NCBI RefSeq assembly: GCF_964340395.1 | Contig: NC_135553.1 | Span: 563,001-627,000, forward strand | Direction: 5' to 3' | DNA length: 64,000 bases | DNA from: Glandiceps talaboti | Lineage: Eukaryota; Hemichordata; Enteropneusta; Spengelidae | Part shown: piece after piece, positions 5,564 to 52,300 of the stretch | Numbering within the stretch: position 1 is the first letter of the stretch | Layout of the letters: each line of letters opens with the position of its first letter | The notes under the pieces: generated by a model | What the model saw: only the letters and a program-made list of their open reading frames with translations | Databases searched by the model: none | What the model was told of the DNA's origin: nothing | Made by a program: the position numbers and the translations under genes

Positions 5564-8500
5564 CACATGTGTTTGTTGTGTTTTTACTCGAAATCCCAAA
5601 ACTTATTAAATTGCAAATATTACACTTAAAAACAGGAAATTAAGAAATGGAATATAGATCATTATATAAATTATTCTGGTCAATTTAGACTTTAAAATGC
5701 CTCTAAAATGAAATTTGGTTATTTGATATCTTAGGCCTGATATCATCCGACAGTAGAAGTATAATTAAATGAGTGAATTTGTACTGTGTGTGAACCAAAA
5801 AATGAACATTATCGGATTAAACTATTACGTTTGGAGAAAAAAAAAAACAGATGTAATTTCGGTAAACTGATACAAAGATGTTGTTTTCAGTAGATTACAT
5901 AAATGTCTGTCATATGTATACTAAAACATTGTCATCTTTATATGATAGATATACTGAGATGCTAGCAGGTCATGTACAGGCTATAGATAAACGTTCTGTA
6001 CATCAAATCTGCTCAGGTCAAGTTGTCTTAAATCTAGCCACAGCTGTCAAAGAACTGGTTGAAAATAGTTTGGATGCAGGAGCTACAAACGTAGGTCAGT
6101 ACAATCAAAGTATTATATTTCTATCCTGTGTTTAATATTACATCATAGAGACAATGATTCCAGAGCCCTTCAATATTGCAGAGACCAATGATTAGCATAT
6201 TCATAATGCCATTGATCTTATTAACTGGAAACCTTAGCCAAATGTCAGAACTCTGTAAACAACATCTCATTTCCACTTCAGCTCATGACAGTCATGTATA
6301 ATAGAATCACCATAGTTACGATCTATGAAGACATAATGACATACATGTAAAGTCATACATATATCTATTACTACTATTCTGGGATCTTCTTGCAGATATT
6401 TTTATACCTTGAGTTTAATTTTTTGAATGAAGCTGATCATGAATGATATGTAATTAAGGCACTGACATCATCTCCCTATTGTCTACAGATGTACGACTTA
6501 AAGAACATGGAGCAGAATTACTTGAAGTTGTTGACAATGGAAGTGGTGTTCATCCCAGTGATTTCAAAGGACTTGGTAAGATTGTGTTCATCCCAGTGAT
6601 ATTTTAAGAGGAATTAAATTGATAAGGTTGTGTTCATCCCAGTGATTTCAAAGGACTTGGTAAGGTTGCAGTGGAGTTGAAAGGACTTGGTAAGGTTGCA
6701 ATGGATATCAAAGGACTTGGTAAGGTTGCAATGGATATCAAAGGACTTGGTAAGGTTGCAATGGATATCAAAGGACTTGGTAAGGTTGCAATGGATTTCA
6801 AAGGACTTGGTAAGGTTGCAATGGATTTCAAAGGACTTAGTAAGGTTGCAATAGATATCAAAGGACTTGGTGAGGTTGCAATGGATTTCAAAGGACTTGG
6901 TGAGGTTGCAATGGATTTGAAAAGACTTGGTAAGGTTTGCGATGGATTTCAATAAACTGAAGACTTTAATTACAATTGTAGGTGCTGCAAATGTGGAGTG
7001 TGTGATTAACAAGAGCACCCAGAACAATGAATCAAGTGTTGAAAAGGCCATGCTGTCTAAAGTGTAGTTCTGCTCAGCTGAACTAATCAATATGCATGCA
7101 TTCTTAGACTTTCACAAGTCTCTGGTCTGTCTTCATCTTTTATTTGAAATTTAAAAAAATTTTAAACTCAAATGTGTTCTTTTGTGTGAAATAATGACCT
7201 GAGTGAGTGATGACTTTTTTCCCCAGTTACGATACTAGTAGTCTTGTCTTGGTACATCCAGACTACGAGTAACTGGTCTTTTTGCTTTGTATGTATGTAC
7301 ATGTACTTACTGAATATTCCTAAACCCTTGTTTTCTTGTGACTTTTCCAGCTCTGAAACATCATACTTCCAAGCTTAGAGATTTCTCTGATCTAACAAGT
7401 GTTGGTACATTTGGGTTCAGAGGTGAAGCTCTCAGCTCGTTGTGTGCTTTAAGGTGAGACAAAGTAGTTTTATATACCATTACTGAGGTACTTAGAATAA
7501 ATGTTCAGTCATAGACTCTAGGTTCATAGTATCAAATGAACATTTCTACTCACTTGGGACTTGCTTCCTAAAAAGTTTTTAACTTTTAAACTTTTAAAAA
7601 AAAATTCATTTAATACTTTGATTGTGTTTCTCCAACAAACCTCAAAAAAACATCAAAACAATTGTTAATTCATAATTCTGAAGGTTTTGAACATCATCTT
7701 ATTTGTATCATTACCATAGCAACTTGACAGTGACAACCTGCCACAGGTCTACACAAATTGGTAGCAAGATACAATATGATCACAATGGTGAAATTATCAA
7801 ACAAGAAGCTTGTCCTCGACAGGTAAGAGCATATTAGATGAACTAGATAGTGTGGCATGCTTTAGTTTCCATGCCAATCATTTATGCAATGTCTTAGTTT
7901 CCATGCCAACATGTGTATATTATATCTTCAGTCGGCAAACAACCTCCATACAACCTAATATATATTGTTGCCATTAGTGTCCATGTCAACCACTTATAAC
8001 ATATACTTCTAATACAATACCTAACACCTCCAGCAAATTTGGATCATTCAGTCAGATCCAGTTTGACACTGAAGAAGGACAAGTGATTTGATTGAAACAT
8101 GTCTGTTTCTCAATTAAAAGTGGAAGAAAAGAACTTGTATATGAATATTATACTAAGTTTCCATGCCAACCACTTAACAATACGCTATGTCTTAGTTTCA
8201 ATGCCAATCACCTCACAATATGCTATGACTTAGCTTCCATACCAACCACCTCACAATATGCTATGACTTAGTTTCCATGCCAACCTCCTCACAATATGCT
8301 ATGACTTAGTTTCCATGCCAACCTCCTCAGAATATGTTGACTTAGTTTCCATGCCAACCACCTCAGAATATGTTGACTTAGTTTCCATGCCAACCTCCTC
8401 ACAATATGCTATGACTTAGTTTCCATGCCAACCTCCTCAGAATATGTTGACTTAGTTTCCATGCCAACCACCTCAGAATATGCTATGACTTAGTTTCCAT

Positions 8501-11500
8501 GCCAACCTCCTCACAATATGCTATGACTTAGTTTCCATGCCAACCTCCTCACAATATGCTATGACTTAGTTTCCATGCCAACCTCCTCAGAATATGTTGA
8601 CTTAGTTTCCATACCAACCACCTCAGAATATGCCATGACTTAGTTTCCATGCTAACTTCCTCACAATATGCTATGACTTAGTTTCCATGCCAACCTCCTT
8701 ACAATATGCCATGGCTTAGTTTCCCTTCCAACCATTTAACAATATGCTATGACTTTGTTCCTAGCCTACTTCTAACATTATGGTATCTTTGTATTTCTAT
8801 ACCAGCAAGGTACAACTGTCAGTTTACAGCAGGTATTTTCCACACTGCCAGTCAGACATAAGGAGTTTCTCAGAAACTTAAAGAAGGTAAGTCAAGGGGG
8901 GACTGTCAGTTTACAGCAGGTATTTCATACATACTGCCAGTCAGACAGACATAAGGAGTTTCTCAGAAGGCAAGTCAAGGTGAAACTCAGTTTACAGCCG
9001 GTATATCAAACACACTGACAGTGACATAAGGCATTTCTTTAGAAATTTAAAGAAGGTAAGAACATAGTATATGTTTATCTGAACAGGTAGTTACGATTCC
9101 TGAACAAAATGAACAAAAGATTTATTTTATATCAGCTGCTACCAATTCAATTGTTCATATGAATCATTGAAACAAAAGACAATCATGTAAATGAAAGATC
9201 TGTAGTATGGAACATCAACAAAGAAATTATTGTTCTTTTACTTTGAAGCAGTAGTTTTCTTTAAAAGGTTGTTTTTAAATAGGCGCAATCTAAGATACCA
9301 CTTCTAGTGTTTTTTGTACTCAATTACAAGAGAATTTGATATTATAGTTTTTTCTGAATATTTGCACTTTTCTTACATTTATAGGAATACACAAAAATGG
9401 TTAATGTGTTATACGCCTACTGTATTATTTCTACCAATGTTAGAATTCACTGCTCTAACCACAATGAAAAAGGGTAAGTACAATGTACTGACTTTATGTT
9501 AATACTTCCTATCTATCTTAAATGAAATGACAAGAATGACAAAAAATTGCTGCCAATAAGGTTGACTTTAAAACCTTTTGCTTTGTGTAATGCAATGTGA
9601 AGTAGTCTGTATAAAATGGTAAATGTAAAAAACTATAGTAAGCATCATAGTGAATATGAAACTCAGACTGAAACATAGAAATGAAAGGTTTTCAAATCTT
9701 GTCATTTCACATCGAACTTATACACGTCTCTTCAAGTTCTGGTCTTCTCACACAGTGTGTGTATTCTCTGTAGTTGGACCGATCTCCATTTATTCAACAA
9801 ACTCATATCTTAATGTATGTTTCTTCATATTCCTTTGACCATGTGAATCTGTATTCTGGTAGCATCTAAGAATGATTATTTTCTTCCAAGAAGTCATAGT
9901 TTTAATATAAAATCTAAAAAAAGACCCTCACATATGGTTTCCAATTTTATGATTACAGTAAAAAGTCAGTGGTTGTTTCTACTAGTGGCAACTCATCAAT
10001 CAAAGAAAATATCACCAATGTGTTTGGCCCAAAACAGGTAAGATTTTATGTTAGCACCCCTGTAAACTACTGCAGTATTGTAGGGTTAACAGGTTATGTT
10101 AGCACCCCTGTAAACTACTGCAGTATTGTAGAGTTAACAGGTTATGTTAACACCCCTGTAAACTACTGCAGTATTGTAGGGTAAACAGGTAAGATTTTAT
10201 GTTAACACCCCTGTAAACCACTGCAGTATTGTAGGGTTAACAGGTTATGTTAACACCCCTGTAAACCACTGCAGTGTTGTAGAGTTAACAGGTTATGCTA
10301 GCACACCTGTAAACCACTGCAGTATTGTAAGGTAAACAGATTATGTTAGCAGCCCTGTAAACCACCACAGTATTGTAAGGTAAACATTATGTTAGCACCC
10401 CTGTAAACCACTGCAGTGTTGTAGGGTTAACAGGTTATGTTAACACCCCTGTAAACCACTGCAGTGTTGTAGAGTTAACAGGTTATGCTAGCACCCCTGT
10501 AAACCACTGCAGTATTGTAAGGTAAACAGATTATGTTAGCAGCCCTGTAAACCACCACAGTATTGTAAGGTAAACATTATGTTAACAGCCCTGTAAACCA
10601 CTGCAATATTGTAAGGTAAACAGATAAGATTTTATGTTAGCAGTCCTGTAAACCACTGCAGTATTGTAAGGAGTGCAGCATGAGTTCTCTTGTAATTTCT
10701 GAATAGATAAGGTATAATATATTAAGACGTGCCACATTACTAACTTTCAAGAAATGGATACATCACAGACAATTTATTGATCTATCTGCTTTCTTGTAGT
10801 TACAAAGTATCTTGGATTTTGAACAGCATCCAGTGACTGAGTCTGTCTGTGAAGAGTATGGTTTAAAATATGGTCAAGTGAACAACGATATATTCAGGTA
10901 CATACTACATAAGCTTCCACCTCTATCTAGAGTTAAGTGAAGTCAGGATGGGTGAATGGTCTATCTAGAGTTAAGTGAAGTCAGGATGGGTGAATGGTCT
11001 ATCTAGAGTTAAGTGAAGTCAGGATGGGTGAATGGTCTATCTGGAGTTAGGTGAAGTCAGGATGGGTGAATGGTCTATCTAGAGTTAAGTGAAGTCAGGA
11101 TGGGTGAATGGTCTATCTAGAGTTAGGTGAAGTCAGGATGGGTGAATGGTCTATCTAGAGTTAGGTGAAGTCAGGATGGGTGAATGGTCTATCTAGAGTT
11201 AAGTGAAGTCAGGATAGGTGAATGGTCTATCTAGAGTTAGGTGAAGTCAGGATGGGTGAATGGTCTATCTAGAGTTAAGTGAAGTCAGGATGGGTGAATG
11301 GTCTATCTAGAGTTAAGTGAAGTCAGGATGGGTGAATGGCCTATCTAGAGTTAAGTGAAGTCAGGATGGGTGAATGGTCTATCTAGAGTTAAGTGAAGTC
11401 AGGATGGGTGAATGGTCTATCTAGAGTTAAGTGAAGTCAGGATTGGTGAATGGTCTATCTAGAGTTAAGTGAAGTCAGGATGGGTGAATGGTCTATCTAG

Positions 11501-14500
11501 AGTTAAGTGAAGTCAGGATGGGTGAATGGTCTATCTAGAGTTAAGTGAAGTCAGGATGGGTGAATGGTCTATCTAGAGTTAAGTGAAGTCAGGATAGGTG
11601 AATGGTCTATCTAGAGTTAAGTGAAGTCAGGATGGGTGAATGGTCTATCTAGAGTTAAGTGAAGTCAGGATAGGTGAATGGTCTATCTAGAGTTAAGTGA
11701 AGTCAGGATTGGTGAATGGTCTATCTAGAGTTAAGTGAAGTCAGGATGGGTGAATGGTCTATCTAGAGTTAAGTGAAGTCAGGATGGGTGAATGGTCTAT
11801 CTAGAATTAAGTGAAGTCAGGATGGGTGAATGGTCTATCTAGAGTTAAGTGAAGTCAGGATGGGTGAATGGTCTATCTAGAGTTAAGTGAAGTCAGGATG
11901 GGTGAATGGTCTATCTAGAGTTAAGTGAAGTCAGGATAGGTGAATGGTCTATCTAGAGTTAAGTGAAGTCAGGATGGGTGAATGGTCTATCTAGAGTTAA
12001 GTGAAGTCAGGATAGGTGAATGGTCTATCTAGAGTTAAGTGAAGTCAGGATTGGTGAATGGTCTATCTAGAGTTAAGTGAAGTCAGGATGGGTGAATGGT
12101 CTATCTAGAGTTAAGTGAAGTCAGGATGGGTGAATGGTCTATCTAGAATTAAGTGAAGTCAGGATGGGTGAATGGTCTATCTAGAGTTAAGTGAAGTCAG
12201 GATAGGTGAATGGTCTATCTAGAGTTAAGTGAGGTCAGGATGGGTGAATGGATAGAATGAATGGCTTCAAATCAGTATGTTGTTTGAGCCTTGCCACAGC
12301 CATATGTTCCTGAATGGCTAAAATCCTTGGGCTAGCTACATTTGAACCACTTATTGTATCCAGTCTAGCAAACTGTATAATTTGGGACCTGATAGGATAG
12401 AGATTGCTTTGTGAAGGAGTTACTTGTATGTACTTTCATTTTTACATAGGTACAATGTAGTGTATGTGCCTTAGGGAGTTCAGGAAGTATAAAGGGTAGT
12501 TGTGCCTTAAAATGTCTGTGCCAAGAGTTATTGTAAAGTGCTTTGAGCACAGTGTGGGAAAGTATTATGTCAAAGAATGCATAATTGTATTATGACTGTA
12601 CATTATTAAACAAATCTAATTTATGTGTGTATGTAAACAGAGTAACAGGATTGGTGTCCAAACCTGATCATGGTCTTGGAAGAAGCAGTACTGATAGACA
12701 ATTCTATTTTATCAACAATAGACCATGTGATATCAGCAAGGTGAGAGTTAGTTCTATTTTATCAACAATAGACCATGTGATATCAGCAAGGTGAGAGTTA
12801 GTTGTATTTTATCAACAATAGACCATGTGATATCAGCAAGGTGAGAGTTAGTTCTATTTTATCAACAATATATCATGTGATATCAGCAAGGTGAGAGTTA
12901 GTTCTATTTTATCATGTGATATCAGCAAAGTGAGAGTTAGTTCTATTTTATCAACAATAGACCATGTGATGTCAGCAAGGTGAGAGTTAGTTCTATTTTA
13001 TCATGTGATATCAGCAAAGTGAGAGTTAGTTCTATTTTATCAACAATAGACCATGTGATGTCAGCAAAGTGAGAGTTAGTTCTATTTTATCAACAATAAA
13101 CCATGTGATATCAGCAAGGTGAGAGTTAGTTCTATTTTATCAGCAATAGACCATGTGATATCAGCAAGGTGAGAGTTAGTTCTATTTTATCATGTGATAT
13201 CAGCAAGGTGAGAGTTAGTTCTATTTTATCAACAATATATCATTTGATATCAGCAAGGTGAGAGTTAGTTCTATTTTATCATGTGATATCAGCAAGGTGA
13301 GAGTTAGTTCTATTTTATCATGTGATATCAGCAAAGTGAGAGTTAGTTCTATTTTATCAACAATAAACCATGTGATATCAGCAAGGTGAGAGTTAGTTCT
13401 ATTTTATCAACAATAAACCATGTGATATCAGCAAGGTGAGAGTTAGTTCTATTTTATCATGTGATATCAGCAAGGTGAGAGTTAGTTCTATTTTATCAAC
13501 AATATATCATTTGATATCAGCAAGGTGAGAGTTAGTTCTATTTTATCAACAATAAACCATGTGATATCAGCAAGGTGAGAGTTAGTTCTATTTTATCAAC
13601 AATAGACCATGTGATATCAGCAAGGTGAGAGTTAGTTCTATTTTATCAACAATAAACCATGTGATATCAGCAAGGTGAGAGTTAGTTCTATTTTATCATG
13701 TGATATCAGCAAGGTGAGAGTTAGTTCTATTTTATCAACAATAGACCATGTGATATCAGCAAGGTGAGAGTTAGTTCTATTTTATCAACAATAGACCATG
13801 TGATATCAGCAAGGTGAGAGTTAGTTCTATTTTATCAACAATAAACCATGTGATATCAGCAAGGTGAGAGTTAGTTCTATTTTATCAACAATATATCATT
13901 TGATATCAGCAAGGTGAGAGTTAGTTCTATTTTATCATGTGATATCAGCAAGGTAAGAGTTAGTTCTATTTTATCATGTGATATCAGCAAGGTGAGAGTT
14001 AGTTCTATTTTATCAACAATAAACCATGTGATATCAGCAAGGTGAGAGTTAGTTCTATTTTATCATGTGATATCAGCAAGGTGAGAGTTATTTCTATTTT
14101 ATCAACAATAGACCATGTGATGTCAGCAAGGTGAGAGTTAGTTCTATTTTATCAACAATAGACCATGTGATATCAGCAAGGTGAGAGTTAGTTCTATTTT
14201 ATCAACAATAGACCATGTGATGTCAGCAAGGTGAGAGTTAGTTCTATTTTATCAACAATAGACCATGTGATATCAGCAAGGTGAGAGTTAGTTCTATTTT
14301 ATCAACAATAGACCATGTGATATCAGCAAGGTGAGAGTTAGTTCTATTTTATCAACAATAGACCATGTGATATCAGCAAGGTGAGAGTTAGTTCTATTTT
14401 ATCAACAATAAACCATGTGATATCAGCTAGGTGAGAGTTAGTTCTATTTTATCAACAATAGACCATGTGATATCAGCAAGGTGAGAGTTAGTTCTATTTT

Positions 14501-17500
14501 ATCAACAATATATCATGTGATGTCAGCAAGGTGAGAGTTCTATTTTATCAACAAAGAATCAGCTCTATTCCATCTCAGATCAGAGGTCTGAGATTCCATC
14601 AACTATTCAGCATGTGATATTACTATTAAAGTTTGTGTTAATAATGAGTGTATGGTAATGGAAGGTAAAAAAAAGAAAACTTGGGCCATTAGCTAGGCTA
14701 TAAAAATGAGACTTACAGAGAATCTTAGATGGTAATCAAGGCTTGCCTTGTAAGCTCTTCCTTGTTGACTTTGAATATATTCAGATGTGTGATTGTTATT
14801 TGTTATTTATCAGGTGTCCAAGTTAGTTAATGAAGTATACCATACATACAACAGACACCAGTATCCTTTTGTTGTTATGGATATATCACTAGCCCAAGGT
14901 AAGCAAGGAATACTCAACTATTAAACTCCCTTGTACATCCTAAAAGTCAACCTCTGTTGACCCCAAAGTATTGACCAATGAAAGTCTATCCAGCTGATCA
15001 TTTGCTGCATGTATCTATTTCATGAAGAAAACTTCATACTGAGACCAGTTGAACAATGCCTCCCCAATAACTCTGACATGCTAACAATGTATGTGTGCAA
15101 CTGTTACATATCAAAGTATTGTATTGGCCCCTGAGTGAGAATGTTGACAATCAATAATCAGTGGTTAAGAGAGTTTGATAAGAGAGATCTTCATGGATAG
15201 TTTAGCTCAACTGATCATGTAGATCTCTTAATCAAACTCTAAGCTATACTTGTATGTGTATGTAAGTAACACAAATACCTGTACATGAACTGTATGGAAA
15301 GATGACTGCAACAAGGCACTGCATGTGATATTGTGACACTATCAAGAATGTTATGTCAATTACATGTCTGTCTTTACTTTGTAGATGGTGTTGATGTCAA
15401 TGTATCAAGAATGTTATGTCAATTACACGTCTCTTTACTTTGTAGATGGTGTTGATGTCAATGTCACTCCTGATAAAAGACAAATATTTCTACAAGAAGA
15501 GAAGACACTTCTGGCAATTATAAAGGTAATCATTGATTGGGCATATAGTGTGGTATTAGCATTATATCAGAGATTGTTTTGCATTGCATGGTTTGACAGA
15601 GTTGGACTGGTTCTATTGAAATTGAAACAATATCTATAGACTAGATGGTTAACACAAGCTGTAACCTTGAACATCTTTGATTGATGGTTGAAAATAACAA
15701 ATATTGGTCATTTAATAAATACAAAAAAACTGCCTATCTTTTCAAATTGCCATTTACAACTTGGCATAATTTTACCAATCTTAGTTCATACCAAAGGTCA
15801 CATGATGAGTATGATTGCCTCAGATATAGCATGTATCCTACATACATCATATTTACTCCACACTTTCTCCTGAAATGCTAGCTATTTCAAATAATTCATT
15901 TGGAATAACACTTGAAGAAACAAGTTGTCATGACAACAGTTAGAATGAGAGAGAAGAATCCAGTAGTACATTGTACGTCATTATAATGTACCGACTACTT
16001 TTAAATTTGTAGTGTTCTTTGACTCGAATATTTGAACCGAGGTCATCAGTCTATCAAGTTAATCAAAAAGCCAAAACTATGATGACTTCAATGTCTGCAA
16101 TGTTTGCAAGGCAGTCCAGTGGTAATGTTACTTTACAAAAGACAGCATCTGAACCTGCCATTAAGACACTTACTCTGTCTAGGCTAAAAAGGTAAGATGT
16201 CATCTGAAATGATTACAAAAACAAGTTAAAATGGCCATATGGATGAGGATTGGGTATTAATTTTGGAATTTTAATTTATAAAACAATTTTATTATCATAT
16301 TCTACTGAGAAAAGTAATGTGAAATAACTTAAACTGGGTGTGTTTCAAACTCAATACATTCAATTTGCAAAAAAACTAAAAAATGTGTAAAACACATTTA
16401 TCAATCTTTTGCAATGTATTGAGCTATAAAACAAGGATATAGCATATGTTGTTTCATATTGGTTTTTCAAGTAGCACACCATGATAAAATTACTTTATAA
16501 ATTAAAAATCTGAAATAAATACCCAATCTCCATCATCCATATGGCCACTGTAATTAAACCAATATGCAAAATAGTAACAGTTGATTTTCAATGAATAGAT
16601 GTGACAGTATTAAACAACATACAAACTTGGTCTGTGTTTGGTGAAGCTGTAGTACAAAATACACATTTTGACTGATCACGAGGGCAACATCATACGTCTG
16701 TTTCCTCAAGGGTCAACCCAACACAGACTTTCCCGAGGGCAAAGCCGAAGTTCATTTGCGTTGAACAGTGTAAAAATTCTACATACATTTGTACCATGTG
16801 ACCACGTACTGACAAATCATAACATAGGAAAGGAACTCGGTTTGTTAGGATTACACATGACTAAGTTATTCAGGGTATATTAAATTCACAAGATATTAAT
16901 ACTGTACATTTTGATTTGAGTATGTTTTTTGACAGCAAAGTTTTCAACCAAAATTGAAAGTGCCATCATATGGTCAGTGTAAGCTTTGCATAAAACCACT
17001 AATTATGATATGATGTGAAATAATAGTTCTATGTATGAATGTTTTACAGGGCATTCTCTCATCCAACTTGTATTTCTAATAATGATGATACTGAGAGAGT
17101 TGAGAAGCCAGCCAAACGTAAGTCACCTAACATAGATTGCAATCATTATCAGTACCTGAGAAATCAACAATTTAGTTTGAAATGTAGAAAACATGGAAGG
17201 CACATTTTATGTGAAAGTCAAGTGAACTGTCGAGCTGAGTTCTTGTTATCTTTTTCAAAAAAGTCTCAATGACATGTATCAGTCAGTAACAGTTTAGTCT
17301 CGTTGTGTTAGCATATTTCATATTTTGACACTTCAAACTTTACTTCACGACATATTCTTAGCTCTCTTTTTATTCGTTCTACTTTTTCAGAACCAAGACT
17401 TGATAATTTTCTCATGAAATCCACAACACTTGGTTCCTCCAAGGAAACTCAGTATACTGATAAAGAAGGGTTTAGATCTGACAGTACTACTACAACATCA

Positions 17501-20500
17501 TTTAGCAAGAAGAAAGCTGAGGATAATGTGCAAATACAAACTGACAGTAAATCAGATAGTCAAACACCCACACTGTCATGTACTCACACTGGAATAGAGT
17601 ATCCAACTCTAGAAAATATCCAGAAAAACAGTGCTTGTTTGGATGAAAACACAGACAACAAAGACAATAAATCTGTTTTAGAAATCACTTTCATTGAAAG
17701 AACTGATTCCAAAACTTCTGATAAAACACAAGATAGAATGAATGATGATGAAACAGTTGTTGGAAGAGACAGTGATTTACAACACATCAATGACTCAACA
17801 AAAAAAGTAAACTTACATCTGAAACCAGAAGGAAAATATGGTGCCAAAGAGAGTCAAACAGAATGCAAAACGGTTTGTTGTTTTAGAATACAATTGTGGT
17901 CTCCTTAGGAAATAATGATAGCATCTCTAGAAATCCATAACGAAAGGCATTGTTGTATTGAAATAAAAATATTAAGTGTTTCTTGTTTGCAAGAAATGAA
18001 TGGAACCTACTACTCTATGAAGCTGTGGCTGGGAAGAATCCTGTCTACACATCATAGTTCATGCTTTGAAGACAAAATACATTTTTGTGCATCTAATATA
18101 GACTAAAGGTCTTTCACAGTTCACACGTTTTGAATTATCCAAAATTATGTAATGTACAGTTTAGTACATGCATTATAAATTTATTATGTGGATCTGTTCT
18201 GACAACAACTGGTGTTTTCACATTGCTCTGGTAAAATTCATATTGCTTGTCACCCAGTGAACTTTGAACTTACAACTTCCATTTCTCTTCTGCTGACAGG
18301 ACAAGGAAATAGAAATTCAAAGAAAGGAGGTCGTTCTTCCTTTTTCTCTCTCTCGTCTACAGAATAAACTAGAGCAAAACAAAGGTGAGTTCTAAGTGTA
18401 GGACACAGTCAGTTGGTGTGAGATGAGATCGTACACAAGGTTTTGGATGGGAAGGTGTTACTCTTAAACTATATGATTGACATATGTACTTCATACCACC
18501 TGTTGGGATATATATATATATATATTGTGATAATATACTTAATGATATTGTAGCCAATGTGAGCAACATATTAGAATAAGTTCTTTTGCTTTTCATGTGA
18601 CAGCACACCTTGTTTCAAAACAGCAATCTAGTACCACCACTGAGATTCAGTCAGTTTCCCTGGTTACTAAGACTATGAACCACTAAGGATGATTTATTTA
18701 TTTACTAATGACAACCATAAAATGGTTTTCATGCAATTGCGATAAAAATACAGTAAATACATTGCACAAATTAATAGATACAGATCAAATTGAAAATAAA
18801 TTACAATAAACCAAAAACCAGACTCATGTTTGGTTATCATTGACAACCACATGAATTCCCATGTTACTAAGGCAACTGATGCATGTCATCTCACACCATT
18901 GCTTTCACATACTAACTGTAGTTTCATCTCTTATCTCTTCTGGGTTTCTACAGGTGACCAAACCAAAGAATTGATTGGGAGATCATTTCATGCTGGAATC
19001 ACACCAGTTGATAACACAGCTGCTGAGGAAGAACTTGAAAGAGAAATAAGGTATGTTGATTGTATGTCTAAACTGTTGATGATTCCTTATACCAACAACA
19101 ATGAACTTATGTACAGGTAAATTTCTGAAGGATACAAGTTCCACTAATCTGTGTACAATAATAATACAGCAATAAATACATGTACTAAGTATGTCTGAAT
19201 GTTTGTTGCCTGTTTTTCTTCTATTCTCTGTTATCACAGGGAATGCATGTAGTACAACTCAATAACATGTACATTGGATATGTCATTACCAATCTGTTTA
19301 AAATCCGATGTAGATGTCGGCTAATCGTTCATTGCTATTTTACCTTCGTTATTTTGCCTGAATTGACCTTCTTGGTACATGTTTACATTTTTATAGAGGA
19401 GGCGATCAGGCTAAAAACGTAAACATGTACTACGAAGGTCAATTCAGGCAAAATAACGAAGGTAAAATAGCAATGAATGATTAGCCGACATCTACATCGG
19501 ATTTTAATCAGATTGTGTCGTTACTTGCATATAGTTGAATGGTTTTTGATGTATTTGTCTGTACTTGTTTAGCTGAATGGTTTTTTGATGTATTTGTATG
19601 TCTGTACTCTTTTAGAGTAAGGGAATACACAATTCTGTACTGAAGGTTTTAATTGTTTTAATGACAGTACTGAAGTTTTATTGTTTGACTACTGAATTGA
19701 AGTTTCTACCGAAACTAATTTCTGTGAGACATGATACTTACCTGTTGGCAAAATACTGATGGGTAACCCGCATTAATTCCTCCAATCCATGCCAAGAAAT
19801 TTTTGGCCCCGCCCCCTCCACCATACCTGGCTCCATATTTGGTTAGCTTAGTCTCCCGCCTAAGTGGCAGTTAGCGCATGCGTACTTGTGTCTTTTATCG
19901 CTCCAAGAGGACAAAAATTTCACAAGGAGACTGTGGGGAAGGTGGGAGGGAGCTCAACAGGTAAGTATCATGTCTCACAGAAATTAGTTTCGGTAGAAAC
20001 TTCAATTCTGTTCGACTATGATACTTACCTGTTGGCAAAATACTGATGGGTAAAAACCCGAATGTGTCAGACTGAAAGGAGGTGGGAGTCTACCACCATA
20101 TCCTATCTAGTTGAAAATCTTTGATTTACAACTACCGACTGCCCGACACTTAAGGGACCTAATGACTGAAGCTTGCTAGCTTCCTGTGTCATATCCCTGA
20201 TATAAAAACTTATAAAGGAGTTTGGGGAGCGCCAGGTTCCTGCCTGTAGAATCTGTGCTACCGGTACCCCTGAGAACAAAGCCCATGATGCCGAGAGAGC
20301 CCTGACTTCATGTGCAGTGACTCTCTCTAACTTACAAGCAGAGCTGGAACTTACTTTGTAAGTCCACTTCACAGTTTCTACCAGCCATTTGGATATAATG
20401 GCTGGAGAAATGTCAGAGGATGACGGAGGAATAGGCAAAAAGAGTCTAGTCCTACTACCTCGAAAAGGTTTGATACGTTTAAGGTACCAAAGTAAGGACC

Positions 20501-23500
20501 TTTTGGGGCAAAGAAGACGCTCTGAGCGGTCTGAGCCCACAAAGGAATCAATAGCTTTAATGATGATCGGCTGAGCCAAGGATCCTAGAACTTGATTCTT
20601 GGCCAGAAACCTAGGGTCAGTGCGCAAGATCACCTGATCCCCTCTCCACTGAATAAAACCCGAACGAGTATCCAATGCATGGATCTCACTCCTACGCCGG
20701 CCTGATGCAAGGGCTAGGAGAAAAACCGTTTTAAAAGTAAGGGCTTTAAGCGAGATGGAATGAAGTGGTTCAAAGGGGGGTTCTCTCAGTGCTCTAAGAA
20801 CCAAGGATAAACTCCACTGAGGTAGTGGCGTTTGTTTAGGAGGGCGTTGAATAAGAAAATGTCTGATCATGTTTGATAAGATCTTATTCTGACCAAAATC
20901 TGGTCCCCCGATGCTTCTGACCGTATTGGCTATCGCCGTGCGATACACCATAATAGTCTTAACTGCATACTTTTTCTCCTCAAACAGAAATAAGAGAAAA
21001 TCTGCTATTGTCTGGGGAGATGGATCGAGAGGATCCTTCTGCCCTCCACGACACCAATCAGAGAATCTTTTCCACTTTTCTCCATAGGTATGGAGGGTGC
21101 TGTCTCTTTGTGGTCTGGCAATGACTGAGGCAGCTTGTTCAGAAAATCCCTGCGAACGGAGGGATCGTTCGATAATCTGAACGCGTGAAGGTGGAACAAG
21201 CTCGGGTTGGGGTGAACAATACCCCTTCCCTGAGACAATAGGTTCTCTTGATCTGGGAGAACTACTGGAAAGTCTACCAGAAGGGATAGCAATACTGGGA
21301 ACCAACTTCGGTTTGGCCACAGAGGTGCTACGAGAATGACTGAGGAACTCTCCTCTTGGATTTTCCTCAGTACAATTGGAAGAAGTGCAAAGGGGGGAAA
21401 TGCATACGCGCTCAGTCCTTTCCAAGACATTGACAGAGCGTCGGTTGCCATTGCTCTCGGATCTGGAATCGGAGACACAAAGAGAGGCAGTTTTCTGTTC
21501 ATGAAGGTGGCGAACAGATCTACAGTCGGTTCTCCCCAATGCAGAAACAGAAGGTGAGCAATCTTGACAGGGATTGCCCACTCTGTAGGAAGAACTCTCT
21601 TGCGACGCGATAGAGCGTCCGCAATGCCGTTCAGCTTCCCTGGCACATGACGTGCTGACAGAAGGATCTTTCGGTCTATGCACCACAACATCAGGTCCCA
21701 TAAGAGGTAACACAGTGTTGGAGACCTGGTTCCCCCTAGCTTGTTTATGTACGCCACTACGGTGGTATTGTCCGAGTGGACTAGAACACTGTGCCCTGTC
21801 ACTAGCATCTCGAAGTCTTGCAGAGCTAGGAAAACTGCCTTCAGCTCTAGCCAATTGATGTGGTGAGAGCTGTCTTGGGGGTTCCAGACACCTGCTGTCA
21901 TCTGACTGTCTAGGTGAGCTCCCCAGCCCTCTTGTGACGCATCCGTGTACAGGGACAGATCCGTGTGACTGTACAAAATGGACTTGCCTTTTAGAAGGTT
22001 GCTCTGGTTTAGCCACCATTCTAAATGGAACCTCAGCACTGGACGAATTGGAACCATTGTGCTGATTGGTTGCGAACTGGGTCGCCAAAGGGCGAGAAGA
22101 TACAACTGAATTGGCCTGATCCGGAGTCTGGCCCATTGTACTATATCGATCAAGGACACCATTAAACCCAGGAGAGACAGAAAATGTTTGGCTGTTATCT
22201 GTCTCAGTGGCCATAGGTTCAGAATGACTGCGAGTAGCTTGTCTATCCGTTCTTGGGTAGGGCAAGCTATTCCCTTGTGTGTAATCAATCTCATTCCCAC
22301 GAATACTGTATCCTGACTTGGGATGAGAGCTGACTTGTCGTAACTGGGGATAAAACCCAGAGAAAGGATTAACAACAATATCTGTTGAATCCGTTCGAGT
22401 AACACCTCCCTTTGTGCATCCCGTATCAACCAATCGTCGAGATATGGATGTAAAAGGGTGGCCCGTCGGTGTAACCAGGCTACTGGCGCCGCTACCACCC
22501 GGGTGAACACCCGGGGAGCAGTGGCTAGCCCAAACGGGAGTGCTGTATACTCGAAAGTTCGGTCTAGGACCGTAAAACGAAGAAACCGGCAACACGAATT
22601 GTGGATAGGGATGTGGAAATAGGCGTCTTTTAGATCGATGGACGCTAGCCAGTCGTTTGGTCGGACAGCGGCTAAAACTGCTCTTGGTGTTTCCATCTGA
22701 AATCTTGGTACTGAAAGAAACGTATTCAGTGCCGTTAGATTGAGAATCGGCCGCCATCCGCCTGACTTTTTCGGGACTAGAAAAAGATGACTGTAAAATC
22801 CCATTTGACACGTACTTGGATCGATTTCTCGAATGGCCCTTTTGGCCAGAAGAGATTCGATCGCGTCCTTGAGTGCCCTTTGTCTTTCCGTGCCTCTTGG
22901 TAGAGAGGTTACGAACGGAATGGAAGTGAGGGGCGGTTGCCTGGCAAATTCCAGAACATAACCGTCCCTTACCGTGGACAAAACCCATTTGTCCTGTGAG
23001 ACTGAATCCCACGCATCTGCAAAGTGGCTTAGTCTGCCCCCCACTGGAATATCCAGTCTTGGAATGGGGAGTTCCTGTATCGTGTTGCCGAGTGGAGAGT
23101 CAGGAGTGCTGCTGCGAGTCAGAGCCCGGTTTTTTAAAGCTGCTCTTGCTAAATAAGGGCTTGTTGGGGCCAGGCTTGCCTCTACCCCGTTGACTACGCA
23201 GTTTACTACGTGGACGTCCTCTGCTAGACTGTCCAGATTTACTCCTGTTGCCTTGGAAATTTCTGTTTGCAGGCACCGTGTTAGTACTTGTACGGTTATC
23301 CTTTGGTCTTGCTGGAGTAGAGGTTGTACGTGGTGACTCCCACATTAACCGCTCTCTCTGCTTTGCTTCGCTGGCCCGCTGGGCCAGGGAAGTCAAATTA
23401 CCAGCAAACAGTGAGGAAGTGGAAAACGAGGAGCCTCTTGCTTCCTGTTTCAGTTCCTGTGTTAACGAGTTAGACTCTCGTTTCAGGAAGGCATCCCTCT

Positions 23501-29846: not shown

Positions 29847-29871
29847 CATCAGTCAAGATTTAACCAATTTA

Positions 29872-30142
29872 TTGGAGTGTATTCCGCCATCAGACAAATC
29901 ATGGCTTTGCCCTTGTAATGGAGTATATTCCGCCATGAGACAAATCATGGCTTTGCTCATGTATTGGAGTGTATTCCGCCATGAGACAAATCATGGCTTT
30001 GCCCATGTATTGGAGTGTATTCCGCCATCAGACAAATCATGGCTTTGCCCATGTATTGGAGTGTATTCCGCCATCAGACAAATCATGGCTTTGCCCTTGT
30101 AATGGAGTGTATTCCGTCATCAGACAAATCATGGCTTTGCCT
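29872..30142 (+). repeat. 46-bp minisatellite in the PMS2 3' UTR
   Basis: About six units with core TGTATTCCGCCATCAGACAA and ATCATGGCTTTGCCC, starting 26 nt after the PMS2 stop codon. If the AATAAA at 30381 is used, the array is in the mature mRNA. Confidence 0.95.
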
Positions 30143-34935: not shown

Positions 34936-37899
34936 ATGGCCGCTCCACTGTCTGCAAGGGAAGCCCTACGGAGAGGTAAATAGCAGAAAAAACAGCATTT
35001 CGTCGCAATGTATACGTTTCTCTTGTGATGTTTAATAACCTTAAATCAATGTGAACTATTTTGCGTTCAGTGTGGTTATATTTCTATTAATTATTTGTAG
35101 AACTTGAGGTATCTTGTGCAGCCGAGTCGGGATATCACCTAGATTTGCTATGCGTCCTGCCTGCAGACGGTTACAGTGTTAACTTGCCCCTAAATGTTAT
35201 GCTTGAACCCAGAACATGGACCATAGTTTTGCGAACGAATGACTTCATATTCTGAAATGAAATTACAATAGCTGGTCTATGAATCAGTTGATATATTATT
35301 ATTTATTTACAACGTAATGCTAATGGCCAAAGTAAATCACACAAGGTCATGAGAAGTTCAAGTATAGTATTTTAACTGTACCAATATAAATGGGTAATTG
35401 GCATCTGAACTGTGAAAGTACAATTGTACAGATTGTGTGATTACTCGGAACTCATCTAATAAACTGTTTGGTATAGTTAAGCATTGACAAGATGACCAAG
35501 ATAATTGCAAACCAAAATACTATCTAAAGTACATGACATGAGAGCCAATGTAATATTTACTTCACCTTGACAGAAACTGATACTGTAAACCTACATAATT
35601 TTTTGGCACTAGAAAATGTTGAGATTTACAGTCTTCAGCTATAACTAGTTCTCAAAGACATTTAGCAAACTGGTAAATTGGGTTCATATACAAGAATGCA
35701 TTTTTAATAGCCACTATTTGTTTTTATATTTTGTTTTCTAGCAAAATAAATGAAAATTGGATTTTTTCCAGATTTACAATACTTACAGTCGACAAATTGA
35801 TGTCGAGATAAAAATTGTAAATGCTCTGTGTCATAGTATCACAGAAACACAATGTAAAACTATTAAATTGAACTCCATAAATGCTATAGTCATCTACTGA
35901 TTGTCTCACTTACTAACAAATATTCACAGGGTTTGTATATTTATAGAAATTATGCCATATTCATTTGTTAATTTGACACTTGACACTCAATCTCAATGTC
36001 TGCTTTCAATCACAATGATAATCAGTTGTTACTATGAAGCCTGGATTGAGTGTCAGTATTGGAATAAGAGAAGTGAGCTGTATGTACAATCTCCTCTCTT
36101 GATGTCCACAGTTTCATTTTCTGTGTCAATCTATTTCACCCAGGTTTACCAACATAGTGTAAGCATAAGTTAGTATTAATTGTGAGTGTCTGTGTATGTT
36201 CATTTTATAACTCATTAACCGTATCCCAACACAAACATTAACTTATTAATTTCGATTAAGACTATAACTGCTAAAATCAATTTTTAATAAAAATGTATGC
36301 TGACATCTATCTCATTTACCTTTCAGGATTTGTTCCATTCTTTAAATATGCATGGGACAAGGAACCAGTTATAGTGGTATCTGTTGCAGCAGGACTGCTA
36401 GGTAGGTATAGAAACAGACATTGGGAATTTACACATGGTACCCCAATGTCAAACTTGTTTCCAATATAGAGTGGGTAATAGAGACAGCAATCAACTCTCA
36501 AGGACTACTAGGTAGGTATAGAAACAGACATTGGGAATTTACATATGGTACCTCAATGGAAAACTTGTTTCCAATATAGAGTGGGTAATAGAGATGGCAA
36601 TCAACTCTTGAAATAATCGTATACTTTAGAGCAACACATACCAACTCAGTGATTATTTTCAAATAGACGTACACGTACTTTAATATAGAATCTAGTGATA
36701 TAGGTACTTTTGATATAGAATCTAGTCATATGGGTACTTTTGATATAGAATCTAGTCAATATAGATAGTTGGATATAGAATCTAGTCATATGGGTACTTT
36801 GATATAGAATCTAGTCATATGGGTACTTTGATATAGAATCTAGTCATATGGGTAGTTGGATATAGAATCTAGTCATATGGGTACTTGGATATAGAATCTA
36901 GTCATATGGTTACTTGGATATAGAATCTAGTCATATGGGTACTTGGATATAGAATCTAGTCATATGGGTAGTTGGATATAGAATCTAGTCATATGGGTAC
37001 TTGGATATAGAATCTAGTCATATGGGTACTTGGATATAGAATCTAGTCATATGGGTAGTTGGATATAGAATCTAGTCATAGGTAGTTAGATATAGAATCT
37101 AGTCATATGGGTACTTGGATATAGAATCTAGTCATATGGGTAGTTAGATATAGAATCTAGTCATATGGGTACTTTGATATAGAATCTAGTCATATGGGTA
37201 GTTAGATATAGAATCTAGTCATATGGGTACTTTGATATAGAATCTAGTCATATGGGTAGTTAGATATAGAATCTAGTCTATCATATATGTAGTTGGATAT
37301 AATCTAGTCATATATGTAGTTGGATATAATCTAGTCATATAGGTAGTTGGATATAGAATCTAGTCATATGGGTACTCTGTTATAGAGTTTAGTCATGTGT
37401 TGTGTTGTGTCATAGTACTACTCGTTTGTTTATTTGTTTTGCAGCTCCTATTTTGGTACTTTGTAGTCCCTTTACAAAGAATGCCGTCAAAAACAATGAG
37501 AGGATGCCATGGGATTATCCAGGTAATAGATAAATAAACTGTCAATTAGTTTTCAAAATAAATCGAGCTTGAATGACACAGGTTCAGTGATCACACATGG
37601 ATGATGACAGTAGAAATTATACTTATATCAGTGTCACTTTTAATGTGGTTTAAATATATTTGTAATGACAGTCCATTATTGTTATTCATTGTGCAGTTTT
37701 CATGCTATTCTTGAACTTACTACTTCTAGTTGGAAACTGTCATGTTGTTTCAGAATTTTGAATAGTTGATGTAACATAAACCAGATAGGTAAATTAATCC
37801 ACAAACTAAAAAATTTCCGGACTCATTATGTTTTCTCTTTACATTTCAGTCCCAATAAGATATGTGGAAGGCAAGACAGGACCACCATCATCTGTATGA
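34936..37899 (+). CDS. NDUFA3: NADH:ubiquinone oxidoreductase (complex I) subunit NDUFA3
   Basis: Four exons with matching phases: 34936-34975, 36327-36401, 37445-37522, 37850-37899 (243 nt, 80 aa; human 84). The FFKYAWDKEPVIVVS stretch matches the family's FLKNAWDKEPVLVVS signature, followed by one membrane helix (about 27-45) and the WDYPVPIRY motif (human YNYPVPVRD). Known role: accessory single-helix subunit of complex I in the mitochondrial inner membrane. The second exon end and donor are duplicated downstream; intron 2 also holds a large minisatellite. Confidence 0.93.
34976..36326 (+). other. NDUFA3 intron 1, no gene seen
   Basis: AT-rich intron with short spurious frames on both strands. 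I see no repeat array or recognisable element in it. Confidence 0.7.
36391..36610 (+). repeat. 110-bp tandem duplication spanning the NDUFA3 exon 2 donor
   Basis: The junction GGACTGCTAG|GTAGGTATAG recurs 110 bp downstream as GGACTACTAG|GTAGGTATAG, and the copies stay alike for the following 90 bp. The decoy donor is at 36512. Using it would add 110 nt and shift the reading frame. Confidence 0.93.
36690..37378. repeat. 28-29-bp minisatellite in NDUFA3 intron 2
   Basis: About 24 units with core GATATAGAATCTAGTCATAT followed by GGGTA(C/G)TT(G/T). It ends about 65 bp before the exon 3 acceptor. Confidence 0.96.
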
Positions 37900-38110: not shown

Positions 38111-38116
38111 ATTAAA
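38111..38116 (+). terminator. Likely NDUFA3 polyadenylation signal
   Basis: ATTAAA, 212 nt after the NDUFA3 stop, the first plausible signal downstream. Confidence 0.5.
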
Positions 38117-47500: not shown

Positions 47501-49074
47501 AATATATGATATCAAATCTATTAGACCAGATGAGATTATATGATATCAAATCTAATAGACCAGATAAGAATATATGATATAAAATCTATTTACCAGATGA
47601 GATTATATGATATAAAATCTATTAGACCAGATAAGAATATATGATATAAAATCTATTAGACCAGATGAGATTATATGATATCAAATCTATTAGACCAGAT
47701 GAGAATATATGATATAAAATCTATTAGACCAGATGAGATTATATGATATCAAATCTAATAGACCAGATGAGATTATATGATATCAAATCTATTAGACCAG
47801 ATGAGATTATATGATATCAAATCTATTAGACCAGATGAGATTATATGATATCAAATCTATTAGACCAGATGAGATTATATGATATCAAATCTAATAGACC
47901 AGATGAGATTATATGATATCAAATCTATTAGACCAGATGAGATTATATGATATCAAATCTATTAGACCAGATGAGATTATATGATATCAAATCTATTAGA
48001 CCAGATGAGATTATATGATATCAAATCTATTAGACCAGATGAGATTATATGATATCAAATCTATTAGACCAGATGAGATTATATGATATCAAATCTATTA
48101 GACCAGATGAGATTATATGATATAAAATCTATTAGACCAGATGAGATTATATGATATCAAATCTAATAGACCAGATGAGATTATATGATATAAAATCTAT
48201 TTACCAGATGAGATTTAGAGATAGGACAGCCATATCTTTTGTATATTAGCTACACAGTTAAACACTGCAAGGGAGTTCATGATTTCACTTTTGATATCTA
48301 TCATACAAAGTTTGCAAATACTGATATTATTGCTTTATTTGATAATTAAGTATCATTCTAATTATAATTACATTAAGATTTAATGCAAACAATGCTTCAA
48401 TCACACACAGAAATTTTCAACTGCAAATTGTCCAGAGTTCTCCTAGTCTTTATCTAAGTACACTTTACACTTTCATTGAATCTACTGTTGGTTTATGCCC
48501 AACACCAAACTATTATCCAACCAACTACCAGTAGGCCTAAATGAATGAAGAGAGTTTTCCCATTTTTGTGGCATTACTGAACCTTGTACTGACTTACACT
48601 TAGACCAAATTAAACGTGTGGACACTAGTATTAGTATTAATCCATGTGCACAATTACATGTATATGAGAGGCTACATCCTATTACGTATGTGTATCTTGA
48701 AACCTGTCTATAGTAATAGTCATATTTCTATAGTGTGTACATTTGTATTTGTAAAGAGTGATATGCATACTGACCTTTACAGTTTCACTGATTGCTTCAA
48801 ACAATTCAATTAACTTGTTAAACCCATAATCAGCAACTCTGCATTGTCGTCCAAAATGATGATGATAAGCTGGTATAAATTTTGGGAACTGTAGTCTAAA
48901 TCTTGGTTGATGTTTTAACAAGTCTATCACATCTTTGGAAAACCTCTTGGTCTTCATTTTCTCGTCCTCAGTTTGATCTAGGCAAGATAGTAAGCAACCA
49001 CATTCAAGTAATCCCATCTACTTGCTATATATAATTCACAACCCTTTAAGAGACAGAAGTAGAGACAGAGCGAC

Positions 49075-49161
<87 letters not shown>

Positions 49162-49206
49162 TGGAGTGAGACAGACAGACAGACAGACAGACTCAGACAG
49201 ACAAAC

Positions 49207-49261
<55 letters not shown>

Positions 49262-49264
49262 GGC

Positions 49265-49308
<44 letters not shown>

Positions 49309-52300
49309 TGAGACAGAGGAGGAAGAGAGAGATGATACACTCAGAGACATAGAGAAAGACAGAGATATGGCAAAAGTTGTGGCTTACTCTTTAAATAGAG
49401 AAGTGTGATCCTGTCAAAATTGATGACTTACCTCTCCTTGGTATAGAAATAATAGTATCATCATTATGTCCAGATATCTATGAAAAATACAAACATTGAG
49501 GTAAGACATTTTTCATCTTTACACAATTTCAGAAAACGTTTTTTCTCTAAAAGACCAGGTAATATTAAACAAAAAACAATCCATTTCTGCTATCAATGAT
49601 GTTCACAATAGGTTTTCTCATTATCCCATTTTCAGAATGTTCACAACATTACAATGACATAAATGATAAATGTTTTTAACATGTCCAGATTAATGTTAAA
49701 CTTACCATGACAGTGTTTTCAGGAAGTTCAGGTAGCAAGTCATGAAGTTCACACACTCCATAGTCGGTGACTTGCCAGTTACGACTAAAGCAACGATGAT
49801 AAGCTGCAGGAAAGTCACTGACAGTCACCTAAAATACAACATGTTATTCTAAATTACAAATTTTACTATACATTAGATTTAAATCACTAGTTTGTTGCAT
49901 GACTTCAAAATTCTGCTGCAATAAGCTAACAAGTTAATCAAGTGATCACATAAATGATAGTCAAGTCTGGACCAGTAACACACAAGAAGCATTGGCTGTA
50001 AGATTGGAACATAAATCAAAACAGTTTGTTAGTTTATCTCCAAATAATTTGGTAAAAATTTGATATACTAGGACAATGTACAAGTAATTACTACATCAAA
50101 CTGCTCCAATTATTTAGTGTTATAGCTGGAAAAGTCTGACAAGATAGCCACACTAAATACCATTGGATCAAAGATATGACTTTAAAATCAAAGACAAAGT
50201 ACATATGTAGATAGGTAAACATACCTGTTTGCTGGCCTGAGATTTGAGTACTTTCAATAAATCTTGAGTGAATCTTTTCACTTGAGACCTATGTGTCAAA
50301 GTCAATGTCTTGGCACTGTACACCCCCATCACCTAAACAAATGATATCAACAAAACATCAACAAGTATTATCAGTGTTGTCATAGATATCTGATATATTC
50401 TATACACATGTTTACAGTTTCATGTATATTGCATAAATGTTTAATCTGTCAATATACAGCATTTGAGGTTTTACTTTAAACTGATACTTTGCAAAGTCAA
50501 AACATATAGTTCCAAACCATTCTAATACTAAGGCACTTGAAATGCTTCTTTTCGTTGCCTCACACCAGTATACTAACGTTAACAGTGTGCTGTTTTACAT
50601 GGGCTGAAACTATGATACTAGTAGCGTACTATTATTATCTGGATGACATAAACCAAATACCTGTATGATGTGTGGAATTGCATCAAATAGCTCTATAAGT
50701 TTGGTAAAACCATATTCTGCAACCCTACACTGACGACCAAAGTGATGATGATAGGCAGGAATGAATTTACTGAATGACATGCGACAATGTGTACTGTTCT
50801 TCAGAAGTTCTATCACTTCTTTGCTGAACTGGAACAATTGTGGTGTAAGAATGGGACTGGGACTTCTCAGAATTCCACCTGTACGCCATGGCAAGAAATA
50901 AGAAATTAACATACAATATTGAATTGTAATTTCAGAAAAATTTGAAGTCTAGAATTGATGCAATATTTTGACAAATTATATTTTATGCAAAGACAGATTT
51001 GATGTGAACTAACTGTTAGCATATGAAAGTATTAGAAAAACATTTTTAAATTTATTTCATTTATTTTATCTTTGAATGTTCATTTCCCAAGACATCCATA
51101 TGTACTATATATTGCTTTTACCAAAACCAGTTCAGTTGTTATAGGTGTGATCGTCAGTGCTTGAACATTCGTTATGAAGACTTTGACACTGAGAGTCATG
51201 GCAATGGTTGCTGTAGAGATCACATTCCTAACTAAATGTATTAGTCTATGTTCCCTAAGTAAGACAGTATGTCATACATTCAATTCTTGAAATGGATATG
51301 TTCACTTCCTTTGCCATACCATAAAGCACTCCTGCATCTTTGTGCAAGACATCTTGTCAATATTTTAGAAAACAAAAGGATATATGAGAAGTCCACATAA
51401 ATTCAATTCACATCAAGTTACATTTTGGAAAAAATGGAGACATTTGAAGTCAGCATAGAATAAAACCAACAGTTAGTTAGTATCCATATTGAAGGTTATA
51501 ATAGAAAGTTATTTACCTGGAGTAGGAGTTGGTGGTCTACAACTAAGGTCATTATAGAAAGTTATTTACCTGGAGTGGGAGTTGGCAGTCTACAACTAAG
51601 GTCATATTAGAAAGTTATTTACCTGGAGTAGGAGTTGGTGGTCTGCAGTTATTCTGACTCCAGCAAACAGTTTTAAAACTGTCTTTACTGACTGCTACTC
51701 TAACACCTTGAATACAGGTTAATAAATGTTCCAGACATACACCTAGATCATCACTCACTTCAAGAGGATGAAACTCTGCTGAATAGCACACTGGTAAACT
51801 GTAAATAAAATCATACAGACAAGGATAGGGTTACATTTCAATGCCCTGAACATGAAGGAATTACCAATAACTTTGCAACCAGAACTGCTATATAAGGGCA
51901 AATTGTGGGGGTGATATGATATACAAAACCACAGCTTATCAAAGATTGAGCAATATGCAATAACAAGTACAATTTAATTGCAATGAATATGTCATGTTAC
52001 CCTTCGTCAGGCATAGTTTCACTTAAAATATGGTGTAAAATTAAACAGAAAAGCTGTAAACTTTATGTCTTCCAAGTCGATAACTGTGCTGTATATTTTG
52101 TATTTTATTGTTGCTTGAATCAACCACACATAACAAAGCATGCTAAACAACGACTTTCCCTATGTCATCACTTTGTCATTAAAATAACCCTACTTACCTA
52201 ATGAGAGGTAATCTGCCATCGTGAATCTGCAGCAATGTGTGTACTTGTGCAGAGAATGTCTTCAATGATACAACAACACAAGGATTTTCATCTTGCACTT

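What the first reader, a model, noticed from the sequence alone, without database searches (positions are those of the whole stretch)
6541..51650. Recurrent tandem duplications straddling exon-intron junctions in three genes
At seven separate junctions (PMS2 exons 3, 6, 8, 10 donors and exon 12 acceptor; NDUFA3 exon 2 donor; a MARF1 donor near 51623) the exon edge and splice site are copied 2 to about 40 times into the intron. Periods (30, ~85, 48, 50, 61, 110, 53 bp) and sequences differ, so these are independent events. Random tandem duplication should not centre on junctions this often. Either the AG|GT core promotes slippage, or such duplications are tolerated or favoured as decoy splice sites. 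Junction duplication with AGGT is a proposed route of intron gain. Here it may instead be feeding intron growth.
Basis: partly seen in the sequence, partly recalled or inferred. Interest (0 to 1): 0.8.

Follow-up and report, generated by a model that had tools for sequence, protein, structure and literature searches.

The report
Exon-edge minisatellites in an acorn worm
In what looks like an acorn-worm genome, short DNA repeats have copied the edges of exons, splice signal included, into the neighbouring introns; this was known from amphioxus under the name "mirages" and here looks like a fairly common, mostly tolerated by-product rather than a device.

Summary
In detail: seven exon-intron junctions in PMS2, NDUFA3 and MARF1 carry tandem copies that include the exon edge and splice site. 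Two are weaker: PMS2 exon 8 shares only 6 exonic bases, and the exon 6 copies are diverged. The phenomenon has a name: "mirages", described in amphioxus Adh, troponin C, globin and PGBD5 genes. The host here is not amphioxus: its mitochondrial DNA has tRNA-Lys(CUU) and almost no AAA codons, as in the acorn worm Balanoglossus.

In exons of four gene families, picked without regard to repeats, clear mirages sit at 9 of 233 junctions (3.9%, CI 1.8-7.2%). A uniform-duplication null gives 2.2 to 3.6, an excess of 2.5- to 4-fold, shrinking to 2-fold (P 0.04) if constrained exon copies stay recognisable twice as long. Breakpoints show no significant preference for AG|GT. Most decoy sites are as strong as the true ones, little better conserved than their surroundings, and almost always frame-breaking. 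Best reading: random minisatellite births in a repeat-rich genome, tolerated when they span an exon edge, sometimes making up most of the intron. New host phylum and a first frequency estimate, not a new kind.

The parts
6489..6575 (+). PMS2 exon 3, true donor at 6575|6576
   Evidence: read from sequence; spliced reading joins FKGL to ALKHHTSK
6546..6952 (+). 30-bp mirage array of the exon 3 donor (9 decoy donors)
8806..8886 (+). PMS2 exon 6, true donor at 8886|8887
8887..9060 (+). two diverged ~85-bp copies of exon 6 end plus donor; one copy has GC, the last keeps GT
   Evidence: read by eye; last copy scored; not found by TRF
9959..10037 (+). PMS2 exon 8, true donor at 10037|10038
10032..10668 (+). 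48-bp array starting at the exon 8 donor; only 6 exonic bases shared
12641..12740 (+). PMS2 exon 10, true donor at 12740|12741
12702..14554 (+). 50-bp mirage array, 38 donor copies (32 scoring at least as high as the true one), 88% of intron 10
15340..15464 (+). 61-bp x2 duplication of the exon 12 acceptor; only the downstream copy (15445|15446) reads on without a stop
15446..15525 (+). PMS2 exon 12
36327..36401 (+). NDUFA3 exon 2, true donor at 36401|36402
36391..36608 (+). 110-bp x2 duplication of the NDUFA3 exon 2 donor
51623..51798 (-). MARF1 exon, true donor after 51623 (minus strand)
51492..51644 (-). 53-bp x2.9 mirage of the MARF1 donor (2 decoys)
8152..8759 (.). 38-bp array wholly inside PMS2 intron 5 (non-junction comparison)
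10922..12251 (.). 38-bp x35 array in PMS2 intron 9, starting 24 bases after the exon 9 donor without including it

Best explanation
These are mirages: intronic minisatellites whose founding tandem duplication happened to span an exon edge. The genome makes minisatellites freely. A duplication wholly inside coding sequence is expected to be removed by selection. One that spans an exon edge leaves one intact splice site next to the intact exon (the first copy for a donor, the last for an acceptor). The spliceosome, pairing sites across the exon, is inferred to keep using that copy, so the extra copies are just intron and can grow like any minisatellite. Shown here: the anatomy; unrelated units in different genes; the same at 9 of 233 junctions in genes picked without regard to repeats, donors and acceptors both; no significant breakpoint preference for AG|GT; decoys mostly as strong as the true site but nearly always frame-breaking. 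Inferred: use of the outermost site, neutrality, and slippage or unequal exchange as the cause of growth. The moderate excess over a uniform null is partly expected because the exonic copy is held by selection and the repeat stays recognisable longer.
For: Sample: rule-based 9 of 196 junctions in 120 exon hits of TCP-1, myosin and adaptin genes after dropping one microsatellite locus, and 0 of 36 by rule in 20 kinesin exons. By inspection one acceptor (L079) is demoted and one kinesin donor (L107) added: 9 of 233, six donors and three acceptors. A further clear case, outside the count, is an exon end at C1:2934484 (L092). Exonic share of the unit 10-84% over 16 mirages, KS P 0.14. Decoy donors: 66 scored, 50 at least as strong as their true site; one is an exon-internal look-alike, and of the other 65 only one (L038, +141 bp) would give an in-frame, stop-free product; 6 acceptor decoys, none clean (with L066 corrected by eye). 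Donor copies: splice nonamer 0.932 identical, other exonic 0.964, other intronic 0.944. The excess sits in older arrays: 6 against 0.64 expected at 80-89% matches, 3 against 0.96 at 90% or more, 0 against 0.27 below 80%. Published amphioxus cases report normal mRNA despite the repeats (passages).
Against: So pure chance is strained. The rate is uneven: 1 of 90 junctions in chaperonin loci, where 0.9 were expected, against 8 of 106 in myosin and adaptin windows by rule. The GT core of donor copies is slightly better kept (131 of 134) than the rest. Donor motifs recur in tandem 2.2 times more often than the reversed motif genome-wide (3652 against 1648) and acceptor motifs 2.3 times (2569 against 1110), and of five such donor arrays inspected only one was at a recognisable exon end, which plain junction capture does not explain.
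Confidence: 0.72

Rival explanations
1. Junctions are mutational hot spots: the AG|GT core, R-loops or co-transcriptional breaks at exon edges start tandem duplication there.
For: 2.5- to 4-fold excess over a uniform null; donor and acceptor motifs over-represented in tandem pairs; even at 90% or more matches 3 junction arrays stand against 0.96 expected, though one of the three is the demoted L079.
Against: Breakpoints do not significantly prefer the core (16 cases, low power); the excess is largest in older arrays (6 against 0.64 at 80-89% matches), as longer persistence would give.
Confidence: 0.15
2. Decoy splice sites are favoured: repeated sites buffer or regulate splicing, or make isoforms.
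For: 50 of 66 decoy donors score at least as high as the true donor; the GT core is kept in 131 of 134 aligned donor copies; in the myosin gene L038 the second donor would add 47 residues in frame.
Against: The splice nonamer of donor copies is not better conserved than other positions (0.932 against 0.944-0.964); 64 of 65 donor copies and all 6 acceptor copies would break the frame or add a stop.
Confidence: 0.05
3. The arrays are traces of intron gain or intron sliding by tandem duplication (Rogers model), with the repeats as the newly made intron.
For: Proposed for amphioxus globin mirages and documented in other genes.
Against: In the cases read here the unit contains both exonic and intronic sequence, so the intron was there before the duplication; no changed intron position was tested.
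Confidence: 0.08

Closest known systems
"Mirages" of amphioxus (Adh3, globin BflGb6 and BflGb9, troponin C, PGBD5)
   Same: Minisatellite-like tandem copies of exon-intron boundaries, donors and acceptors, many copies with AG/GT signals, units of 10 to about 160 bp (passages of PMC3087553 and PMC3902484)
   Different: Host is an ambulacrarian, probably an acorn worm, not a cephalochordate; up to 38 donor copies; frequency estimated here at 9 of 233 junctions
Rogers-type intron gain by tandem duplication of AGGT exon segments
   Same: Tandem duplication around AG|GT (passages of PMC4974935)
   Different: Unit spans an existing junction; the intron is enlarged, not gained
Introner elements (recalled)
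   Same: Repeated sequence bearing splice sites in introns
   Different: Units differ from gene to gene and are local tandem copies

Membership tests
Mirage minisatellites | Tandem repeat spanning an exon-intron boundary | tested here: met
   seven in the window, nine in genes picked without regard to repeats
Mirage minisatellites | Both 5' and 3' boundaries affected | tested here: met
   window 6 donors, 1 acceptor; sample 6 donors, 3 acceptors
Mirage minisatellites | Copies retain AG/GT signals | tested here: met
   65 donor copies and 6 acceptor copies; at least one PMS2 exon 6 copy has lost GT
Mirage minisatellites | Normal mRNA in spite of the copies | not testable with these tools
   no RNA data
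Mirage minisatellites | Length instability between haplotypes and in the soma | not testable with these tools
   one assembly only
Rogers intron gain | Exonic segment duplicated, new intron created | tested here: not met
   units hold exonic and intronic parts
Rogers intron gain | Intron absent at the same position in relatives | not tested
   no relative's gene was compared
Introners | Same element dispersed over many introns | tested here: not met
   unit sequences differ between loci by eye; no genome-wide search with a unit was made

The most novel reading that the evidence does not exclude
Exon edges are true hot spots of minisatellite birth in ambulacrarians as in amphioxus, so that about one junction in 25 carries decoy splice sites; the genome is then a large natural experiment on how the spliceosome ignores decoys as strong as the true site, up to dozens at one junction, and on introns growing from their ends.
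Probability: 0.25. Interest if true: 0.7.

Novelty: new member of a known kind. Interest (0 to 1): 0.45.

Why it matters
It moves mirages from a cephalochordate curiosity to a second deuterostome phylum and gives a first frequency. PMS2 intron 10, with 38 decoy donors behind the true one, 32 of them scoring at least as high, is a clean natural test of exon definition: the site next to the exon must win against many equal rivals. It also shows introns growing out of their own splice junctions, which bears on models of intron gain and sliding.

Tried and rejected
Rejected: amphioxus as host (mt tRNA-Lys CTT, AAA nearly absent). Window GC, 27-40% in 2-kb bins outside the retroelement, was an early hint only. 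ATA=Ile in COX1 was my first argument; against the best PDB match (7o37, recalled as mouse) the four ATA sites face M, I, I, V, so it is only suggestive. "open_frame_aa" values of up to 1397 suggested stop-free introns; checked and wrong. L062 (CATC microsatellite) dropped with its two junctions; L079 demoted because its repeat shares only about 2 exonic bases with the true acceptor; the L056 junction called by rule was the second copy, corrected by eye. L018 and L019 arrays close to exon edges do not include them. The antisense donor-like array at 57955-58202 is not at a junction. The stop test for L066 used a wrong start; by eye a TGA follows 51 bases after the junction (sequence). In one search PMS2 exon 5 was started too late (7747 instead of about 7720); mended in the protein typed. 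A full exon annotation of the window by codon score was too incomplete to give a denominator.

Rows used and dropped: PF00118, 54 of 57 hits (one gene not fetched; one gene with two hits in one open frame left out). PF00063, 42 of 78: the first 41 in listing order plus one later hit in a fetched window; at least one other later hit in a fetched window was not used. PF01602, 24 of 37: 24 of the first 26 in listing order. PF00225, 20 of 142: repeated clusters skipped, then listing order with three left out.
Full report
What is there. The window (C6:563001-627000 of a 590-Mb, 47-contig genome) holds PMS2 (+), GFER (-), NDUFA3 (+) and MARF1 (-); the genes were named by reading and checked with Pfam. 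TRF gives 42 rows of tandem repeats. The clearest is PMS2 exon 10: about the last 39 exonic bases and the first 11 intronic bases are repeated so that 38 further donors follow the true one, 32 of them scoring at least as high, and the array makes up 88% of intron 10. Two are weaker. Exon 8 shares only six exonic bases with its array, and the exon 6 copies are so diverged that TRF misses them.

Whose genome. The mitochondrial contig C40 (51,222 bases) holds COX1 three times at a spacing of 15,435 bases, probably an assembly concatemer. ARAGORN gives tRNA-Lys with anticodon CTT. AAA occurs 2 times and AGA never in 2,003 codons of five genes, while AAG occurs 27 and ATA 51 times (gene ends approximate). 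According to passages of PMC3121625, tRNA-Lys(CUU) is proposed as an ambulacrarian character and Balanoglossus lacks AAA, whereas cephalochordates have UUU. The gene order is vertebrate-like, unlike echinoderm orders as described in PMC2697986 (passages). But CYTB lies between ATP6 and COX3, unlike the ND5-CYTB neighbourhood reported there for two hemichordates. I conclude an enteropneust hemichordate at about 0.9; the species is unknown.

Is it more than chance. I asked in genes chosen without regard to repeats. Profile searches gave exon positions for TCP-1/HSP60, kinesin, myosin and adaptin. I fetched 13 stretches of chaperonin genes and 60 exon windows with flanks of about 500 bp, then 20 kinesin exon windows with 220-bp flanks. 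Splice sites were called by weight matrices near the profile edges. By rule (TRF array of period at least 20 covering 6 bp on both sides) 9 of 196 junctions were covered in the first set, one microsatellite locus dropped. Expected were 1.9 from non-junction arrays or 3.1 from all arrays, in coordinates where every array counts as one unit. The set is uneven: 1 of 90 in the chaperonin stretches (0.9 expected), 8 of 106 in the exon windows (1.0 expected). In the kinesin set 0 of 36 were covered by rule. Inspection removed L079 and added L107, a 123-bp duplication with 51 exonic bases whose donor the caller had missed. Without collapsing arrays the comparison reverses: 13.7% of sampled non-coding bases lie in arrays, more than the share of junctions.

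Age. Junction and other arrays have the same median identity, 88%. With the per-locus null split by identity, 3 junction arrays stand against 0.96 expected at 90% or more matches (one of the three is the demoted L079), 6 against 0.64 at 80-89%, 0 against 0.27 below 80% (L107 is not in this set). The excess is therefore mostly in older arrays, as expected if the exonic copy is held by selection and the repeat stays recognisable longer. Numbers are small, and the young class does not exclude a true hot spot.

Genome-wide motif pairs. AGGTAAGT recurring at 28-58 bp is found 3,652 times, the reversed motif 1,648 times. These are matches, not arrays; large arrays weigh most, and the reversed motif also rings in simple ATGG-type runs. 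By array, judged by eye from the first 100 rows of each, five arrays lie in the first 5.05 Mb of C1 against seven places outside simple runs (eight with a 16-bp ATGG-like array) in 33.2 Mb for the reversed motif, although the single motif is only 1.5 times as common (30 against 20 in 250 kb outside arrays). TTTTACAG pairs: 2,569 against 1,110, not looked at by array. Of the five donor arrays, one (L092) is a clear exon end; two (L090, L093) lie opposite to a long coding-like frame on the other strand; two (L089, L091) have no recognisable exon. So splice-like motifs are over-represented in arrays beyond the cases that I can tie to a junction; this remains unexplained.

Mechanism. If AG|GT started the slippage, breakpoints should cluster there. 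Over 16 mirages (PMS2 exon 6 left out, L092 included) the exonic share of the unit runs from 10 to 84% and does not depart significantly from uniform (KS P 0.14; 9 sample cases alone P 0.23; the shares were typed from the sequences, and 16 cases give low power). If decoys were favoured, their splice positions should be better kept. In donor copies the splice nonamer is 0.932 identical, other exonic positions 0.964, other intronic 0.944; the GT core alone is 131 of 134, 0.978; in acceptor copies 0.904 against 0.935 and 0.894, core 8 of 8 (the exon 6 copies were too diverged for that script, exon 8 was not given to it). Of 66 scored decoy donors 50 match the true site in strength. But 64 of 65 donor copies (one look-alike set aside) and all 6 acceptor copies would shift the frame or add a stop. 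The exception is a myosin gene (L038) in which the second donor would add 47 residues. Hence the outermost site must normally be used, which exon definition would give; this step is inferred.

What is known. Passages of PMC3087553 name such structures "mirages", cite the Adh locus study of 2002 (not held), report RT-PCR results that suggest normal splicing for globins, and propose a role in intron gain. A passage of PMC3902484 adds PGBD5 and troponin C. Searches for the same in hemichordates or other invertebrates (open-licence papers only, several lists capped, titles and abstract starts seen) listed none that I recognised. In the passages seen, the earthworm metallothionein paper PMC12783039 describes intron repeats and unexplained exon duplications but no repeats spanning a junction, and the amphioxus huntingtin paper PMC2206037 mentions tandem repeats without this feature.

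Verdict. The most economical account is random minisatellite birth tolerated at exon edges, with a modest excess that a whole-genome annotated count should settle.

Noticed in passing
window 20103-25655, minus strand: GC-rich (48-49%) stretch inside the PMS2 gene with three long overlapping open frames (851, 779, 998 aa); one reads like a reverse transcriptase with RNase H, another ends like a tyrosine recombinase, as in DIRS-type retrotransposons (recalled likeness; Pfam gave no match for the two pieces tried; frames).
   Followed up: partly
C40 (L023, L024): Mitochondrial gene order with CYTB between ATP6 and COX3, unlike the ND5-CYTB neighbourhood reported for Balanoglossus and Saccoglossus.
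   Followed up: partly
window 57955-58202: 65-bp x3.8 array with CAGGTAAG/CAGGTATG donor-like motifs on the strand opposite to MARF1, 31 bases from an exon acceptor.
   Followed up: partly
window 29870-30141: 46-bp x6 minisatellite just after the PMS2 stop codon, in the presumed 3' UTR.
   Followed up: no
C1:991643, C1:1321974, C1:1679140, C1:5046389 (L089, L090, L091, L093): Donor-motif arrays not at a recognisable exon end on the same strand; two lie opposite to a long coding-like frame.
   Followed up: partly
L018-L021 (C26): A CCT-type chaperonin gene with many intronic arrays, one of 115 copies of 39 bp starting shortly after an exon that the profile search missed.
   Followed up: no
C22, C23, C9, C18, C15, C2, C12, C5: Kinesin-motor exons in repeated copies with identical or near-identical scores, in clusters and on several chromosomes; perhaps a gene family or a captured motor in mobile DNA.
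   Followed up: no
window 54446-54644: Much the same peptides readable on both strands, so an inverted repeat.
   Followed up: no
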